Below, in pieces: positions 58,816 to 64,000 of a stretch of DNA of 64,000 bases; position 1 is the first letter of the stretch, and the number at the start of each line of letters is the position of its first letter. This DNA comes from Actinomadura chibensis NBRC 106107 (GTDB taxonomy: Bacteria > Actinomycetota > Actinomycetes > Streptosporangiales > Streptosporangiaceae). Where the stretch lies: assembly GCF_001552135.1 (NCBI RefSeq), contig NZ_BCQP01000017.1:310001-374000 (forward strand), in the 5' to 3' direction. The notes under the pieces were generated by a model, which saw only the letters and a program-made list of their open reading frames with translations, was not told where the DNA came from and searched no databases. The translations under genes were made by a program, and so were the position numbers.

Positions 58816-59187
58816 TCACTCCTCGCCGGAGAACCGCTCCCACGCGGACTGGCGGGTGGTCCCGAGCGCTTCGCCGATCTTGGTCCAGGTGACGCCCCGC
58901 CGGCGCAACTCCCGCACCCACGAGCGCAGGTCGGCCTCGGCCTGATCGATGTGCGCGGCGACGCGCGGAATGTGGTCCAGCATCTCCACGTCCGTCAGCG
59001 AATCCCAGATGGGCGCACGCGGCTCCGTGGTGCCGCCGAGGCTCCCGTCAATGATCGACGCGGCCAGAGCCACGCACTCGTCGCAGATGTTCACTCCAGC
59101 ACCGGCGACCAGCTTCTGGACCTCGGTATCCGGCTTGCCGCAGAAGGAACACCGAGCAAGTTCGGCCGGGATGTCGGGTACAGCCAC
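58816..59187 (-). CDS. ClpX-type zinc-finger protein with C-terminal helix-turn-helix
   Basis: A protein of 123 residues from GTG 59187 (GGAG six bases upstream). C4 zinc finger of the ClpX N-domain type (Cys 13, 16, 35, 38: [20 protein letters not shown]), then a linker and an HTH at the end ([25 protein letters not shown]). No AAA+ domain, so it is not ClpX. It is probably a DNA-binding regulator. Its own promoter carries two 17-bp palindromes, which suggests autoregulation. Confidence 0.8.
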
Positions 59188-59350: not shown

Positions 59351-59800
59351 TCAGCGCGTATCAGCGCCCAGCCACTCGTCGGCGAGCTTGCGAGCCTCGT
59401 CCAGGAACACGTCCAGTTGAGCCTCGGAAAGGCCGACGACCTTGACTATCCCCGCGAGGAGCAGCATGTAGTAACTGCCCTTGGTCTCGTCTGGGACGTC
59501 ACTGATGGACTCATCGGTGAACGTGGCCAAGAGAAGACGTTCCGCCGTGTGCGGGTCGAAGTCCTCCGTCAGCGGATGGTGGGCGCGCAGATCGGAGACG
59601 AACCGCATGACCGCCGCCGACGGATCGGCGGCTTTCGCGAACCTCCGGTAGGCGGCCTCAGCGAAGGCCGCCGCGACGAGCACACCGCGAGCATCCCTTT
59701 CCTCCGAGCTGAGTCGCTCGCTAACGCGGTCGAAGGTGTCAACGTCCCCTTCAAGCACCGCTCGTATCGACGCCACCTGATCAGCGCTCACCGCCGCCAT
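59351..59800 (-). CDS. small paralogous protein D of the duplicated cassette
   Basis: A protein of 149 residues from ATG 59800, with GGAGAGG just upstream. Mainly helical: DQVASIRAVLEGDVDTFDRV at the N-terminus, AAFAEAAYRRFAKA, HTAERLLLATFTDE, then LDEARKLADEWLG near the C-terminus. Nearly identical to copy B at 60633 and more distantly related to copies A and C. No TM, signal or catalytic motif. Family unknown to me. Confidence 0.7.
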   Translation of the reverse strand: MAAVSADQVASIRAVLEGDVDTFDRVSERLSSEERDARGVLVAAAFAEAAYRRFAKAADPSAAVMRFVSDLRAHHPLTEDFDPHTAERLLLATFTDESISDVPDETKGSYYMLLLAGIVKVVGLSEAQLDVFLDEARKLADEWLGADTR

Positions 59801-59941
59801 CGACCTCTCCGTTCTCGGCTCCGACTCCCGACGCACCTGGCCGCCTCAAGCCGGACGACACCGAACGTAAGAAGATAAAGGGCATGTGACGGCGAACCAG
59901 GGCGCTCGTCCTTCCATAGCGAGGCCGTCCACTTCGCTGGT

Positions 59942-60382
59942 TCAACGCGGGCCGTCGGCCAGCCACTCGTCGGCGAGCTTACGGGCATCGTCCAGGAACG
60001 CGTCCAACTGGGCGTCGGACAGGTTCGCGTCTGCGATGATCCCGCTCAACAGAATGGCGAAGTGGTCGGCTTGAGCGTCGCCGTTGATGTCTTCGATGTT
60101 CTCGTCGGTAAAGGTGGCCAGGAGCAATCGCTCGGCTGTGCGAGCGTCGATGTCATCCGCGAGTCCGCGCCGTGTGCGCAGATCGTCCACGAAGGCGGTG
60201 ACGTCGGAGGGCGACCTGCCCTTGAACCTCCGCTCTGCCGCCAGGAAGAACGCGGCGGAGATGAGCGCACCCCGCGCCGGCCGCGTGGCCGGATCGAGTT
60301 GCTTGCTGATCCGCTCGAAACTCTCGGCGTCGCGGGTGAGCATGGCCCGAATCGACTCCACCTGATCAGCGGTGACCTTCAT
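59942..60382 (-). CDS. small paralogous protein C of the duplicated cassette
   Basis: A protein of 146 residues, starting MKVTADQVESIRAML, with AAFFLAAERRFKG, RTAERLLLATFTDENIEDI and the C-terminal LDDARKLADEWLADGPR. Closest to copy A at 61226; together with D it forms the second copy of the A-B cassette. Helical, no recognised domain. Confidence 0.7.
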   Translation of the reverse strand: MKVTADQVESIRAMLTRDAESFERISKQLDPATRPARGALISAAFFLAAERRFKGRSPSDVTAFVDDLRTRRGLADDIDARTAERLLLATFTDENIEDINGDAQADHFAILLSGIIADANLSDAQLDAFLDDARKLADEWLADGPR

Positions 60383-60429
60383 CTGTCTCCCTCTTCGGTG
60401 GGCGTCCTGCGATTGGGAACCCGCGCGCA

Positions 60430-60579
60430 GACTTCGAGGTCGCCCAATACGGCGAGCGCAGATTATGGGACGAGGCCGAGGTCGCTTTCACCTGGTGAGT
60501 GGACAACGACACACCCAGTGAAGAACGCTCCGGCATCACGATCGACGCCCAGGGCGAACGGCTTTGGCTCCTGCTGTGA
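60430..60579 (+). pseudogene. C-terminal remnant of a PCMT/FxLD-type methyltransferase
   Basis: A plus-strand frame encodes DFEVAQYGERRLWDEAEVAFTW, stop, VDNDTPSEERSGITIDAQGERLWLLL. This fits the C-terminal end of the actinobacterial methyltransferases annotated as FxLD-system or L-isoaspartate type (pattern QYG-x-RRLWDE-x-E-A-x-x-WW, later ER-G-x-T-x-x-x-G-x-x-x-WL). The second Trp codon appears to have become TGA. No other part of the enzyme is present. It sits between copies B and C on the opposite strand. Confidence 0.45.
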
Positions 60580-60632
60580 CGTCCGCCTGGATGTGACAAG
60601 AGCCGTTCCGCTGCATCACTCCCTGCGCCGAT

Positions 60633-61082
60633 TCAGGACGTGTCGGCGGCCAGCCACTCGTCAGCGAGCTTGCGAGCGTCGTCCAGGAACGTGTCCAGTT
60701 GAGCGTCGGAAAGGCCGACGACCTTGACTATGCCCGCCAGGAGCAGCATGTAGTAACTGCCCTTCGTCTCGGCCGGGACGTCGCTGGTGGACTCATCGGT
60801 GAACGTGGCCAAGAGGAGGCGTTCCGCCGTGTGCTGATCGAAGTCCTCTGTCAGGGGATGCTGAGCGCGCAGATCGGAGACGAACCGGATGACCGCCGCC
60901 GACGGGTCGACGGCTTTCGCGAACCTCCGGTACGCGGCCTCAGCGAAGGCCGCCGCGACGAACACACCGCGAGCATCTCTCTCCTCCGAGCTGAGTCGAT
61001 CGGTAATGCGGTCGAAGGTGTCAACGTCTCCCGTGAGCACTGCTCGTACCGACGCCACCTGGTCAACGCTTACCGTCGTCAC
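60633..61082 (-). CDS. small paralogous protein B of the duplicated cassette
   Basis: A protein of 149 residues from GTG 61082, with GGAG eight bases upstream. Sequence runs parallel to copy D without gaps (SVDQVASVRAVLTGDVDTFD, QHTAERLLLATFTDES, LDDARKLADEWLAADTS). Their upstream spacers are also similar, showing a recent duplication at DNA level. Unknown function. Confidence 0.7.
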   Translation of the reverse strand: MTTVSVDQVASVRAVLTGDVDTFDRITDRLSSEERDARGVFVAAAFAEAAYRRFAKAVDPSAAVIRFVSDLRAQHPLTEDFDQHTAERLLLATFTDESTSDVPAETKGSYYMLLLAGIVKVVGLSDAQLDTFLDDARKLADEWLAADTS

Positions 61083-61225
61083 CGGCGTCTCTCCATCCTT
61101 GGCTCTGACTCGCCACGCGCCTGGCCGTCTCAAGCCGGACGACACCGAGCGTGAGAAGGCGAAGGGCATGTGACGGCTCACCGGGGTGCTCGTCGTTCCA
61201 TAGCGAAGCCGTCCACGTCGCCGGT

Positions 61226-61669
61226 TCAGCGTGGGTCGTCGGCGAGCCACTCGTCGGCGAGCTTGCGAGCGTCGTCCAGGAATGCGTCCATCTCCGAGCT
61301 GGAGAGATCTGATTCAACGACAAGAGCGGTCAGAAGGAGGATGAAGTGTCCGCCCCGCGCCTCAGCGTCGATGTCGTCGATGTCCGCGCCAGTGGATACG
61401 GCTAGGAGGAGACGTTCGGCAATGTGCGGGTCTACGGCGTCCGCCATGCGGTCCGACCTTCCTCGCACCCTTCCTACGAACGCCGCCACCTCGGCCTTGT
61501 TACCATCCTTGAATCTCCGCTCAGCAGCTGTGAAGAACGCGGCCATAACCAGCGCGAGATAGCCACTTTGTGTGTTCGGGTCGAGCCGATCGTAGATCTG
61601 ATGGTGAGTGTCGAGATCGCCCACCAGAACTGAACGCAACGCCGACACCTCGTCAGCCGTCACTTGCAT
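61226..61669 (-). CDS. small paralogous protein A of the duplicated cassette
   Basis: A protein of 147 residues, MQVTADEVSALRSVLVGDLD start, FFTAAERRFKDG, HIAERLLLAVSTGADIDDI and LDDARKLADEWLADDPR end. It pairs with copy C. Its start overlaps the end of the upstream linker protein gene by 17 bp, so the two are translationally coupled. Confidence 0.7.
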   Translation of the reverse strand: MQVTADEVSALRSVLVGDLDTHHQIYDRLDPNTQSGYLALVMAAFFTAAERRFKDGNKAEVAAFVGRVRGRSDRMADAVDPHIAERLLLAVSTGADIDDIDAEARGGHFILLLTALVVESDLSSSEMDAFLDDARKLADEWLADDPR

Positions 61670-62729
61670 CCCTTGTCTCCCAATCTCTAATCTTGCCTCG
61701 ACCCCACCGGAGCAACTCGGCGCCGACTATACCCAGCGCAAGCAAGGAGGAGGCTGCGGTCCCGGCATCAACGCCCGAGTGATGTGGGTCTGCCATCCTG
61801 GGGCCGCTATCAGCCCGGGTCTCGGCATGGCCGGAGGGACGTGGACCGAAGAGGTCGGCAGCCAGGTCGGCGTTTTGCTCGACGCTCTTCTTAGCGTTTC
61901 CGTATCCCGAGTACAGCGCCTTGCGGAAGCCGTCACCCTTGGACCTTTCCCCATCATCTCCTTCGGACAAGGTCTCGCCGGTCGGTATGTCTTCAAGCCG
62001 GTCTACACCCTCGGTCCAGTCGGCGTCGGAGTCCCGGACGGTCCGCTCGAAGGTTTCTTTGCGGCCCTCGGTCTTGCTGAGGTCGGGTGCGAACGGGTCG
62101 ATCTGTTCCTTGATCGCGTCATCGTCCAGCTCGGCCGTTTGCTTGTCCGGCTTGCCGGTCTCGGAGGGCTGCTCGTTGGTGGCTCCGTTTCCTTGAGCGG
62201 CCTCGCGGCTCGCGCGCCGGGCGTCGAGTTCCTCGGCCAGGTTAGCGAACCCGCAATTAGAAGGTGTCCGCTCAAGAGGGGACTCCGTCTCCGTCGGCTT
62301 CTGCTCCCTCTCCGGTGCTGGCTCGGCCGTCTCCGACTTGCCGCCAATCTCGGCGCCTTCCACCGGTTTGTCGGTTTCCCGGGCCGCCGCGCGCGACTCG
62401 GCACGGGAGGGTTGATCAGGAGAACCGGGCCGGTCCGGAGGTGGCGGTAATGGCCGGTCCGCACCTCCCGTTCCCTCCGGCTCGTCAGGCCGATCTAACC
62501 GTGGGTCGTTGTCCACGCACGGAAGTCTGTCAAGACACTGGAAACCTCCACAAGGCCACCGGCATCGGCGAAGGCATGCAACGGACCGCCCTGGACACGG
62601 GGACTGTGCATTCCTTCTACCGAATCGATGCTTGAACGCCAGGACGATCATGCCGGGGACGACGACGGCCAGCAGAGAGAACCATGTGGAGATCATGGCG
62701 ACCAGGACCGCTTGGACGAGTTCCGTCAT
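61653..62729 (-). CDS. two-TM protein with long acidic linker, head of the duplicated-cassette cluster
   Basis: A protein of 358 residues. An N-terminal TM helix (about 5-33: LVQAVLVAMISTWFSLLAVV, then PGMIVLAF) is followed by a Cys-rich stretch (about 43-72) with atypical codons that may mark a frame error. Then comes a long Glu/Asp/Lys/Pro-rich disordered region (about 75-290) and a C-terminal hydrophobic segment (ASSLLALGIVGAELLRWG, about 327-344) with a basic end. Ribosome site weak at ATG 62729; the N-terminal 80 residues are the least certain part. Coupled to copy A. No family recognised. Confidence 0.5.
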   Translation of the reverse strand: MTELVQAVLVAMISTWFSLLAVVVPGMIVLAFKHRFGRRNAQSPCPGRSVACLRRCRWPCGGFQCLDRLPCVDNDPRLDRPDEPEGTGGADRPLPPPPDRPGSPDQPSRAESRAAARETDKPVEGAEIGGKSETAEPAPEREQKPTETESPLERTPSNCGFANLAEELDARRASREAAQGNGATNEQPSETGKPDKQTAELDDDAIKEQIDPFAPDLSKTEGRKETFERTVRDSDADWTEGVDRLEDIPTGETLSEGDDGERSKGDGFRKALYSGYGNAKKSVEQNADLAADLFGPRPSGHAETRADSGPRMADPHHSGVDAGTAASSLLALGIVGAELLRWGRGKIRDWETRDASDG

Positions 62730-62871: not shown

Positions 62872-63375
62872 CTAGGGGGACACCGTCATGCGGTGTGTTC
62901 TGTCCAGGTGCGGGAGGGCGCCGACTATGGGGTGTCCGACGGAGAGGGCGGCGGCTCGGATGAAGCGCTCGTCGATGGCGATGCGGGCCCAGACGACCTT
63001 TCCCGCCGCGAGTTCGGCCCAGCCGCAGCCGCCGGTCGCGAACGCCTGGACGATGATCAGGCCCCGGCCGTGGGCGCCGAAGTAGCCCGGGGTCTGCAGC
63101 AGCGGCCGGCCGGGGTGGTCGTCCCAGACGCACATCTCGATGCCGACGTCGAGGCGGCTGACCCACGCGCGCATTTTCTCGCTCACGCAATAGCGTGCCG
63201 CGTTGGACGCCAACTCCGACATGATCTGGCACGCGTCACTGCGGTAGGCGTTGAGCCCCCACACATTGAGGCTGCTCCGCACGAGATCGCGCGTCAAATA
63301 CACGGTTTCGCGACATGCGGCAACTCTCACCGCAAATTGGTTGGTCTGGCCCGTTTTGCACGTGGCGGCGTCCAT
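62872..63375 (-). CDS. ATP-binding (HATPase/anti-sigma type) regulatory protein
   Basis: A protein of 167 residues of the RsbW/SpoIIAB-like GHKL fold: N-box SELASNAARYC, G1 box VWDDHPGRP and G2 box GAHGRGLIIVQ, then the terminal strand KVVWARIAI. In actinobacteria such proteins are commonly encoded beside XRE/DUF397 genes. It is divergent from an XRE regulator of that kind at 63474. It may antagonise a sigma factor or act with the XRE protein. Confidence 0.85.
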   Translation of the reverse strand: MDAATCKTGQTNQFAVRVAACRETVYLTRDLVRSSLNVWGLNAYRSDACQIMSELASNAARYCVSEKMRAWVSRLDVGIEMCVWDDHPGRPLLQTPGYFGAHGRGLIIVQAFATGGCGWAELAAGKVVWARIAIDERFIRAAALSVGHPIVGALPHLDRTHRMTVSP

Positions 63376-63473: not shown

Positions 63474-64000
63474 ATGCCCCCTCGGAACGATCTTGATCCA
63501 GATAACGATCATTGGCATTGGCTGGCTTCTGACCTGCGGGTATGGCGGCTTGAGCGGAACATGACACAGCCCGCTCTCGGCGAGATTCTTGGGGTGACGA
63601 AAACTCAGGTTTCGAACTGGGAATCGGCTCGCGAAAACCTGCCGATGAAGCACGCCGAAACTCTTGACCTGGTATGGCGTACTGCGGGGCATTTCACCCG
63701 GCTTCGTCGGCTGGCGGAGCGGGCGCACGATCCCGGCTGGTGGAGTCAATACACGCCGATTGAGGCCAGGGCGTCCCGCATCTGCTACTGGGCTCTAGCG
63801 ATCATCCCCGGACTGCTCCAGACCCCGGACTATGCACGTGCGCTGCTGGAGGGCGGTCAGATCATCGAGGACGTAGAAGAGTTCGTCACCGCTCGCATGG
63901 CCCGTCAAGCAGTGCTTGAGCGGGAGCAACCGCCGGAGTTGCGGGTGTTGATCAACGAGGCGGCACTGGATCAGCCCGTAGGTGGTGCGGAAGTAATGCG
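63474..64000 (+). CDS. XRE-family regulator with DUF5753-like (Scr1-type) domain, cut by window end
   Basis: Starts at ATG 63474 (MPPRNDLDPDNDHWHWLASD) and remains open to the window end (about 175 residues visible). N-terminal HTH (MTQPALGEILGVTKTQVSNWESARENLP), then HAETLDLVWRTAGHFTRL and the effector domain opening with ARASRICYWALAIIPGLLQTPDYARALL, the hallmark of the actinobacterial XRE/DUF5753 family. A later ATG at 63561 would cut into the HTH region. Partner of the divergent ATP-binding protein. Confidence 0.9.
   Translation, partial: MPPRNDLDPDNDHWHWLASDLRVWRLERNMTQPALGEILGVTKTQVSNWESARENLPMKHAETLDLVWRTAGHFTRLRRLAERAHDPGWWSQYTPIEARASRICYWALAIIPGLLQTPDYARALLEGGQIIEDVEEFVTARMARQAVLEREQPPELRVLINEAALDQPVGGAEVM

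What the first reader, a model, noticed from the sequence alone, without database searches (positions are those of the whole stretch)
59351..62729. Unrecognised cluster: two-TM acidic linker protein plus four small paralogues made by cassette duplication
A membrane protein with a long disordered acidic linker is translationally coupled to small helical proteins that exist as two types (A/C and B/D). These were multiplied by tandem duplication of an A-B unit. All four end in the same LD[DE]ARKLADEWL motif. Keeping two co-encoded types and amplifying them together suggests they work as a pair. Similar amplification is seen in immunity, antitoxin and antiphage loci. I cannot match any described system, and a regulator pair and an autoregulated HTH gene flank it.
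Basis: partly seen in the sequence, partly recalled or inferred. Interest (0 to 1): 0.62.

Follow-up and report, generated by a model that had tools for sequence, protein, structure and literature searches.

The report
Likely toxin gene with immunity array
This soil actinomycete locus looks like one module of a bacterial toxin arsenal: a disordered protein with a membrane-inserting tail, followed by four related helical proteins that probably protect the producer; in its genus such modules go together with one particular, uncharacterised motor protein.

Summary
The cluster is real: a linker gene, then four paralogues (X1,Y1,X2,Y2), without significant Pfam or NCBIfam matches. Two details change. 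(1) The N-terminal TM is probably a mis-called start; GTG 62516 fits the homologues. (2) All four paralogues are of one subtype (A); the usual second partner (B) is missing, and the recent duplication covers only the 3' end of X, the spacer and Y. The linker is a polymorphic-toxin-type protein: its N-terminal motif (PPPDRPGSPGQPSRxES) heads other proteins of the genus, one in this genome, whose C-termini match toxin families (papain-fold amidase, calpain-like protease, Scabin-like ART, CdiA nuclease, XopAD end), most with a small downstream gene. Linkers instead end in a hydrophobic helix; A and B diversify with that C-terminus more than with the N-terminus. Of all 65 held genus genomes, 30 have one HerA-type ATPase and all 30 have A/B genes; of the other 35, three have only orphan A or B. 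Best reading: a membrane-active toxin plus A/B immunity array, served by an uncharacterised HerA-type machine (in most loci examined, an ATPase with a two-TM, P-loop-less relative). System membership is well supported; toxicity, immunity and export are inferred.

The parts
61653..62516 (-).
   Evidence: N-terminal motif and layout as in homologues; GTG at 62516; AF2 on 6 rows: mean pLDDT 51.5, 150 of 287 residues under 50, longest helices 191-222 and 251-282
62376..62447 (-). Conserved N-terminal motif PPPPDRPGSPDQPSRAESRAAARE, shared with toxin-domain proteins elsewhere
   Evidence: (window hit G000:C17:372373-372507, E 5.2e-9)
61710..61766 (-). C-terminal hydrophobic segment AGTAASSLLALGIVGAELL followed by a basic tail
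   Evidence: KD 1.56 over 19 aa; lies in predicted helix 251-282
61226..61669 (-). X1, A-type small protein, 147 aa, overlaps the linker stop by 17 nt
60633..61082 (-). Y1, A-type small protein, 149 aa
59942..60382 (-). X2, A-type small protein, 146 aa; modelled as a 7-helix domain
   Evidence: AF2 mean pLDDT 93.7, pTM 0.88 on 14 rows
59351..59800 (-). Y2, A-type small protein, 149 aa
60633..61270 (-). Recently duplicated unit, copy 1: last ~14 codons of X1 + spacer + Y1
   Evidence: step in sliding identity at about 61270
59351..59985 (-). Recently duplicated unit, copy 2: last ~14 codons of X2 + spacer + Y2
62872..63375 (-). HATPase-like regulator next to the cluster (context)
   Evidence: PF02518 21.4 bits, below its cut-off of 26.4
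63474..64000 (+). XRE regulator with DUF5753, runs past the window end (context)
   Evidence: PF19054 176 bits at G000:C17:373750-374265; gene

Best explanation
The locus is an effector-immunity module of a polymorphic toxin system. The linker protein carries the system's shared disordered acidic N-terminus (probably the targeting region) and, in place of an enzymatic toxin, a ~100-residue C-terminal region ending in a glycine/alanine-rich hydrophobic helix and a basic tail, which I infer inserts into and disturbs the target cell membrane. A and B (here four A copies) are soluble-looking proteins (A modelled as 7 helices) that I infer bind the linker's C-terminus and protect the producer and its kin. 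Amplification and recombination of A copies would broaden immunity. Delivery is inferred to depend, in trans, on the HerA-type ATPase 'HerA-2' and its membrane-anchored, P-loop-less relative, encoded elsewhere in this genome (contig C31). Shown: gene order, N-terminus shared with toxin-domain proteins, co-occurrence with HerA-2 in the genus, co-diversification of A and B with the linker C-terminus, orphan A or B in genomes without HerA-2. Inferred: toxicity, immunity, export, target.
For: (1) Proteins with this N-terminus and recognised toxin domains above Pfam cut-off: PF15644 papain-fold amidase (L058; L286), PF00648 (L287, L300), PF22596 Scabin-like (L289; L299 in this genome), PF18451 CdiA_C (L294); partial matches to the C-terminal end of XopAD (L292, L302). 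A small same-strand gene follows in eight of these nine; L294 has none adjacent in my gene call. (2) The slot after a HerA-type ATPase holds linker+A+B (L010, L143, L144, and L133 with a HerA-1-like ATPase) or a toxin-domain protein plus a small gene (zeta toxin, L136; ADP-ribosyltransferase, Streptomyces clavuligerus pSCL4). (3) All 65 held genus genomes: HerA-2 in 30, A/B in 33, both in 30 (Fisher p 2e-15, not corrected for relatedness). On a HerA-1 gene tree of 60 of them HerA-2 changes 5 times at least and A/B goes the same way in 4.9 of 5 independent pairs on average (sign test p 0.0625, the least that five pairs can give). (4) N-terminal motif at E<1e-5 in 25 of 27 HerA-2+ and 0 of 33 HerA-2- genomes. 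(5) A distances follow the linker C-terminus (r 0.72) more than the N-terminus (r 0.29); B likewise 0.71 vs 0.32 (n=41 and 37). (6) The three genomes with A/B but no HerA-2 have a single A without linker (G007, G019) or an intact B beside relics of linker and A (G555). (7) Tandem immunity paralogues recombining through shared blocks are documented for some T7SS immunity genes (PMC9484751, abstract and one section read).
Against: No toxin, pore or immunity family is recognised in the window proteins. A/B genes occur in all 30 HerA-2+ genomes, unusual for one toxin among many and compatible with a core component. Two homologous co-encoded partners are unusual for an immunity function. A and B look soluble, whereas the immunity protein of the nearest membrane-active analogue, TspA, is membrane-bound (PMC7456083). 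The C-terminus is nearer than the N-terminus to A on the DNA, so linkage could explain part of the correlation. HerA-2 presence is strongly clustered on the tree, so few independent changes exist. In G136 the neighbouring HerA is HerA-1-like (46% identity) without a P-loop-less gene nearby. In L311 an N-motif gene call without hydrophobic tail stands before an A gene (possibly a broken gene). The window linker lacks the shared upstream element. No export has been shown.
Confidence: 0.58

Rival explanations
1. Linker+A+B is not a toxin module but a core or adaptor part of the HerA-2 machine: the linker is a membrane tether sharing the docking N-terminus, and A/B are a helical partner pair that loads or targets substrates, somewhat as small helical pairs do in ESX/T7SS systems (recalled comparison).
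For: A/B genes in all 30 HerA-2+ genomes; cassettes directly beside HerA-2 or its P-loop-less relative in divergent members (L010, L036, L050, L070, L143, L144); recurrent A-then-B pair with small overlap or gap. N-motif toxins with other C-termini were fetched as places away from A/B, so their lack of adjacent A/B is partly by choice; in L058 a linker+A+B cassette lies about 3 kb downstream of the amidase gene.
Against: Several divergent copies in many genomes (up to 11 matches; C-terminus mean identity 0.22, A 0.45), unlike a core part; A or B persists where HerA-2 and an intact linker are absent; B is dispensable (window, L036, L037).
Confidence: 0.25
2. An anti-phage defence module built on a HerA-type ATPase, with the linker as a membrane-damaging abortive effector and A/B as its controllers.
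For: HerA-2 has partial matches to PADLOC mad8 and HerA models (L070: 59 bits to mad8, 54 to HerA).
Against: NCBIfam anti-phage HerA scores 40 bits against a cut-off of 800; no linker, A or B protein scanned matches PADLOC; one A-type protein each against plasmids and phages gave no match; varied effector C-termini with small downstream genes fit inter-bacterial conflict better.
Confidence: 0.1
3. A developmental or stress regulatory locus of the XRE-DUF5753/DUF397/HATPase kind, in which linker and small proteins are signalling partners.
For: XRE-DUF5753-like genes within six genes of a family member in 31 loci; same-strand within 5 kb downstream of A in 20 of 45 cassettes, against 40 DUF5753 hits in the 9.4-Mb genome; flanking regulators in the window.
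Against: 25 of 45 cassettes do not show that neighbour (some loci are cut short); the N-terminal motif and the toxin-domain siblings are unexplained.
Confidence: 0.06

Closest known systems
Polymorphic toxin systems (Zhang et al. 2012, PMC3482391; four passages read)
   Same: Constant N-terminal region joined to variable C-terminal toxin domains, small downstream genes, tandem immunity-like paralogues, orphan copies
   Different: The disordered PPPDRPGSPGQPSRxES N-terminus and the HerA-2/P-loop-less pair are not in the passages I read; the linker's C-terminus has no family match
TspA/TsaI of Staphylococcus aureus T7SS (PMC7456083; passages read)
   Same: Toxin encoded away from the secretion locus, found in all strains of its species, membrane-acting C-terminus, several immunity homologues beside it
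   Different: TspA has an LXG domain and a membrane-bound immunity protein; here the N-terminus is disordered and A/B look soluble
EsaG and TipC tandem immunity arrays (PMC9484751; abstract and one section read)
   Same: Tandem paralogues recombining through blocks of high similarity
   Different: No sequence relation tested or shown; A has its own 7-helix model
HerA/FtsK/VirD4-type ATPases of T4SS and conjugation (PMC12857230; passages read)
   Same: HerA-2 (L070) has HerA_C, DUF87 and TrwB_AAD_bind matches above cut-off
   Different: Paired with a two-TM, P-loop-less relative; neighbours were not scanned systematically for VirB4 or channel subunits
XRE-DUF397 pairs of Streptomyces (PMC10364602; passages read)
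   Same: Regulators of this kind neighbour many cassettes
   Different: Neighbours only; the linker and small proteins have no DUF397 or DUF5753 match

Membership tests
Polymorphic toxin system | Constant N-terminal region with varied recognised C-terminal toxin domains | tested here: met
   For the wider set. The window's own C-terminus matches no toxin family.
Polymorphic toxin system | Small immunity-type gene directly downstream | tested here: met
   Small genes follow eight of nine N-motif proteins with a recognised domain; A/B follow the linker. Immunity function itself untested.
Polymorphic toxin system | Toxicity and neutralisation | not testable with these tools
   Needs a bench test
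Polymorphic toxin system | Dedicated export route | tested here: inconclusive
   30 of 30 HerA-2+ genomes have A/B; export not shown
Type VII (ESX) substrates | WXG/LXG N-terminal domain | tested here: not met
   No such Pfam match in the five linkers scanned (window; L036 and L070; L144 and L133)
TspA/TsaI | LXG toxin with DUF443-type membrane immunity | tested here: not met
   No such Pfam match in the window linker or its four small proteins
Type IV secretion system | VirB4/VirD4 ATPases with channel subunits | tested here: inconclusive
   TrwB_AAD_bind above cut-off for HerA-2; VirB4 models only far below cut-off; neighbours not scanned systematically for channel subunits
Anti-phage HerA systems | Full-length match to an anti-phage HerA model | tested here: not met
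   L070 HerA-2: 40.4 bits against a cut-off of 800
Known fold for A | Significant structural match in the PDB | tested here: inconclusive
   Foldseek: 0 hits at E<=0.001; best VIA Z 5.1, rmsd 4.6, 95 aligned

The most novel reading that the evidence does not exclude
A previously undescribed protein-delivery system: a soluble HerA-type ATPase plus a membrane-anchored, P-loop-less HerA-like partner exports toxins recognised through a disordered acidic N-terminus with the PPPDRPGSPGQPSRxES motif, with membrane-active toxins neutralised by a new family of paired helical immunity proteins.
Probability: 0.4. Interest if true: 0.88.

Novelty: new variant of a known kind. Interest (0 to 1): 0.68.

Why it matters
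It turns an orphan cluster into part of a toxin arsenal found in about half of the held genomes of its genus, with a candidate motor, a candidate targeting motif and a candidate immunity family. The linkage predicts specific tests: does HerA-2 export these proteins, does the PSRxES region target them, do A/B neutralise the linker tail. I saw no description of it in the listings of six searches; these cover open-licence PMC papers only, and four of the six listings showed only the best 8 to 15 of more hits.

Tried and rejected
Profile and sequence searches of Pfam, NCBIfam, PADLOC and PDB with A and B proteins gave nothing useful. Foldseek and VIA gave only weak, scattered helical matches (Bcl-2, Nur77, cyclin K, VP30), set aside as common arrangement. 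tblastn of one A-type protein against plasmids and another against phages: no match. The first HerA-1 tree used wrong reading frames for part of the rows and is discarded; one search replaces it. A two-TM linker was rejected after comparing 44 homologues (linkers of 190 aa or less, such as the one before the L057 pair, and those more than 30 nt from A were not in that set). Gene calls come from my own simple codon-usage caller, not a standard annotation; it gave no N-motif gene in L296, L297, L298 and L304, no HerA-2 row in L183, and splits L293. Rows L039, L056 and L015 were dropped as duplicates of L011, L012 and the window; L142 repeats L010. Family members under 130 aa were left out of the tree.
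Full report
What is there. On the minus strand the window holds a linker gene followed by four small genes X1, Y1, X2, Y2. Linker and X1 overlap by 17 nt; the other gaps are 143, 250 and 141 nt. None of the five proteins has a significant Pfam or NCBIfam match. The window lies in a 9.4-Mb assembly. Its GTDB genus includes genomes named Actinomadura: the contig lengths of G046:C529 and G028:C29 equal those of L011 and L012.

The start and the TM count. Of 44 homologous linkers (3 cut at the 5' end), every one has its best hydrophobic window 25-45 residues from the C-terminus, and the second best is under 0.6. 30 of the 44 carry the strict PSR.[DE]S-type motif and others carry variants such as PGADGRTPRIDS; L010 lacks it. 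The window ORF from 62729 has an extra hydrophobic segment upstream of that motif. GTG 62516 restores the homologues' layout, without a clear Shine-Dalgarno. AlphaFold2 on six rows gives mean pLDDT 51.5 with 150 of 287 residues under 50 and long helices at 191-222 and 251-282.

The duplication. X1 and X2 are 52-70% identical in DNA up to about 61270 and 75-96% from there through the spacer and most of Y. The last recombination therefore involved the 3' end of X, the spacer and Y. This resembles recombination of some tandem T7SS immunity genes through shared blocks (PMC9484751, abstract and one section read). In a maximum-likelihood tree of 108 family proteins A-type (first genes of cassettes) and most B-type (second genes) separate; a few second genes from early members (L050, L070, L009, L010) branch near the A side. 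All four window proteins fall in one starred clade (100/99) inside A with L036 and L037, whose cassettes have a single A and no B.

The family and its cassette. 29 of 60 genus genomes have the family, 33 of all 65 held. In the regional loci the usual layout is a linker (mostly about 330-720 aa), A within about 20 nt of its stop on either side, then B with a short overlap or gap. The order-level search found 13 of 200 genomes, 12 in this genus and one, G136, in another; the phylum sample found 1 of 296, the window's own genome. Relatives also occur in an Actinoallomurus and a Streptosporangiaceae record (a capped scan). One A-type protein each against plasmids and phages: no match. AlphaFold2 of X2 gives a confident 7-helix domain (pLDDT 93.7, pTM 0.88) with no Foldseek match at E<=0.001 in the PDB and no PDB sequence match.

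What the linker N-terminus is attached to elsewhere. A profile of the N-terminal ~52 residues (A7) hit 28 of 60 genomes at E<=0.01 and 25 at E<1e-5. I fetched 20 further places, chosen away from A/B hits; my gene caller found an N-motif gene in 16. Pfam on ten: PF15644 (L286), PF00648 (L287, L300), PF22596 Scabin-like (L289 and L299, the latter in this genome), PF18451 CdiA_C (L294), YwqJ-deaminase below cut-off (L301), none for L292, L302, L303. L292 and L302 match the C-terminal end of XopAD in NCBIfam (96 and 104 bits, far below the whole-protein cut-off); PMC12691689 (passages read) says some XopAD-containing proteins hold Rel-like domains. L058 has the linker N-terminus with PF15644. L288, L291, L293 and L295 look like L287 by eye only. 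L285 runs off its contig and L290 is short. Small genes of about 83-144 aa follow most of them, two in the L291 case. This is the anatomy of polymorphic toxins.

The HerA link. Beside cassettes of divergent members stand a ~955-aa HerA-type ATPase (HerA_C, DUF87 and TrwB above cut-off for L070) and a ~710-aa relative. Among the close ('type 2') proteins over 500 aa in my loci, 30 of 30 HerA-2 have a Walker A motif and no TM; 24 of 24 relatives have two TMs and no Walker A. In 19 of the 20 HerA-2 loci the two stand divergently (L183 gave no row) and none of the 20 contains A/B; flanking genes recur in most. The slot after HerA can hold linker+A+B, a zeta-toxin protein (L136) or an ADP-ribosyltransferase (pSCL4); the last two have acidic N-termini but not the exact motif.

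Co-occurrence. All 65 held genus genomes: HerA-2 in 30, A/B in 33; 30 share both, 3 have A/B only, 32 neither. Five genomes were outside the first 60, in which the pattern was seen: G552, G554 and G185 have both (G185's A/B had already appeared), G553 neither, G555 A/B only. Fisher p 2e-15 ignores relatedness. On the HerA-1 tree of 60 genomes HerA-2 changes at least 5 times and A/B 6; in five independent pairs A/B goes the same way in 4.9 on average, sign test 0.0625. Exceptions: G007 and G019 have a lone A without linker (L072, L075), and G555 an intact B beside relics of A and linker (L305). This genome has a similar relic in L013. The N-motif at E<1e-5 is in 25 of 27 HerA-2+ genomes (not G032, G052) and 0 of 33 others; G026 and G054 had hits near 2e-3. 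I did not fetch the cassettes of every HerA-2+ genome: for G004, G012, G032 and G052 only search hits were seen. In loci of G552, G554 and G185, six of seven cassettes show a linker with C-terminal hydrophobic segment; L311 does not.

Co-diversification. Over 41 cassettes mean pairwise identity is 0.46 for the first 55 residues, 0.22 for the last 105 and 0.45 for A; 0.40 for B (n=37). A distances correlate 0.72 with the C-terminus and 0.29 with the N-terminus (partial 0.71 and 0.25); B 0.71 and 0.32. Both partial correlations of A exceed the permutations (p 0.001), and linkage is a confounder.

Shared control. A DNA element GCACGTGCAAAGTT (up to 2 mismatches) lies 133-149 bp before the start of 14 of 54 N-motif genes, including L287, L301 and L303, against 10 of 1511 other genes; the 7 of these listed at one mismatch or fewer are themselves linker genes with a variant N-terminus. 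The window linker does not show it. XRE-DUF5753-like genes lie same-strand within 5 kb downstream in 20 of 45 cassettes.

Interpretation. Membership of the linker in this toxin-like set, and the tie between the set and HerA-2 in the genus, are well supported. That the linker tail is a membrane-active toxin and A/B its immunity proteins is the simplest reading of slot, co-diversification, array growth and orphan retention. The strongest rival is a core or adaptor role, because every HerA-2+ genome has A/B; TspA shows that a toxin present in all strains and encoded away from its secretion locus is possible (PMC7456083, passages read). In the four passages of Zhang et al. 2012 that I read (PMC3482391), FtsK/HerA ATPases appear for T7SS and T4SS routes. 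I saw no paper describing this set in the listings.

Noticed in passing
L286:5706-6308, L012:2687-3280, L181:11706-12281 and other HerA-2 loci: A ~191-200 aa gene (starts like MARVELYVSVDVEADGPIPGPYSM; exonuclease-like by eye) recurs next to HerA-2, to a linker cassette and to an N-motif toxin.
   Followed up: no
L131:11313-12266, L036:13325-14653, L182:12127-13248, L190:8562-9548: N-motif proteins related to each other (found with the L131 protein; L036 by eye) and encoded beside HerA-2; no Pfam match for the two scanned (L131, L036). Possibly another effector or a core part.
   Followed up: partly
L138, L148-L150: A second HerA paralogue (HerA-1, found in all 60 genomes) with its own P-loop-less relative sits next to MurT/GatD-like genes (names by eye) in these loci.
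   Followed up: no
L013:10269-10977 and L305:7252-8100: Matching relic cassettes (truncated A, intact B) before a similar helicase-like gene in two genomes; one of the two lacks HerA-2.
   Followed up: partly
L011, L037, L286, L306 upstream of N-motif genes: A recurring short reading frame or DNA element (peptide like VHVRELNVQILDVRAYMDG) shortly before N-motif genes, perhaps another form of the shared promoter element.
   Followed up: no
L036:3-4077: Genes resembling Tad-pilus ATPase and inner-membrane parts (by eye only) about 5 kb from a linker cassette; may be chance.
   Followed up: no
window 58816-59187, minus strand: Small protein with a ClpX-type C4 zinc finger (PF06689, 63.9 bits) just downstream of the array.
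   Followed up: no
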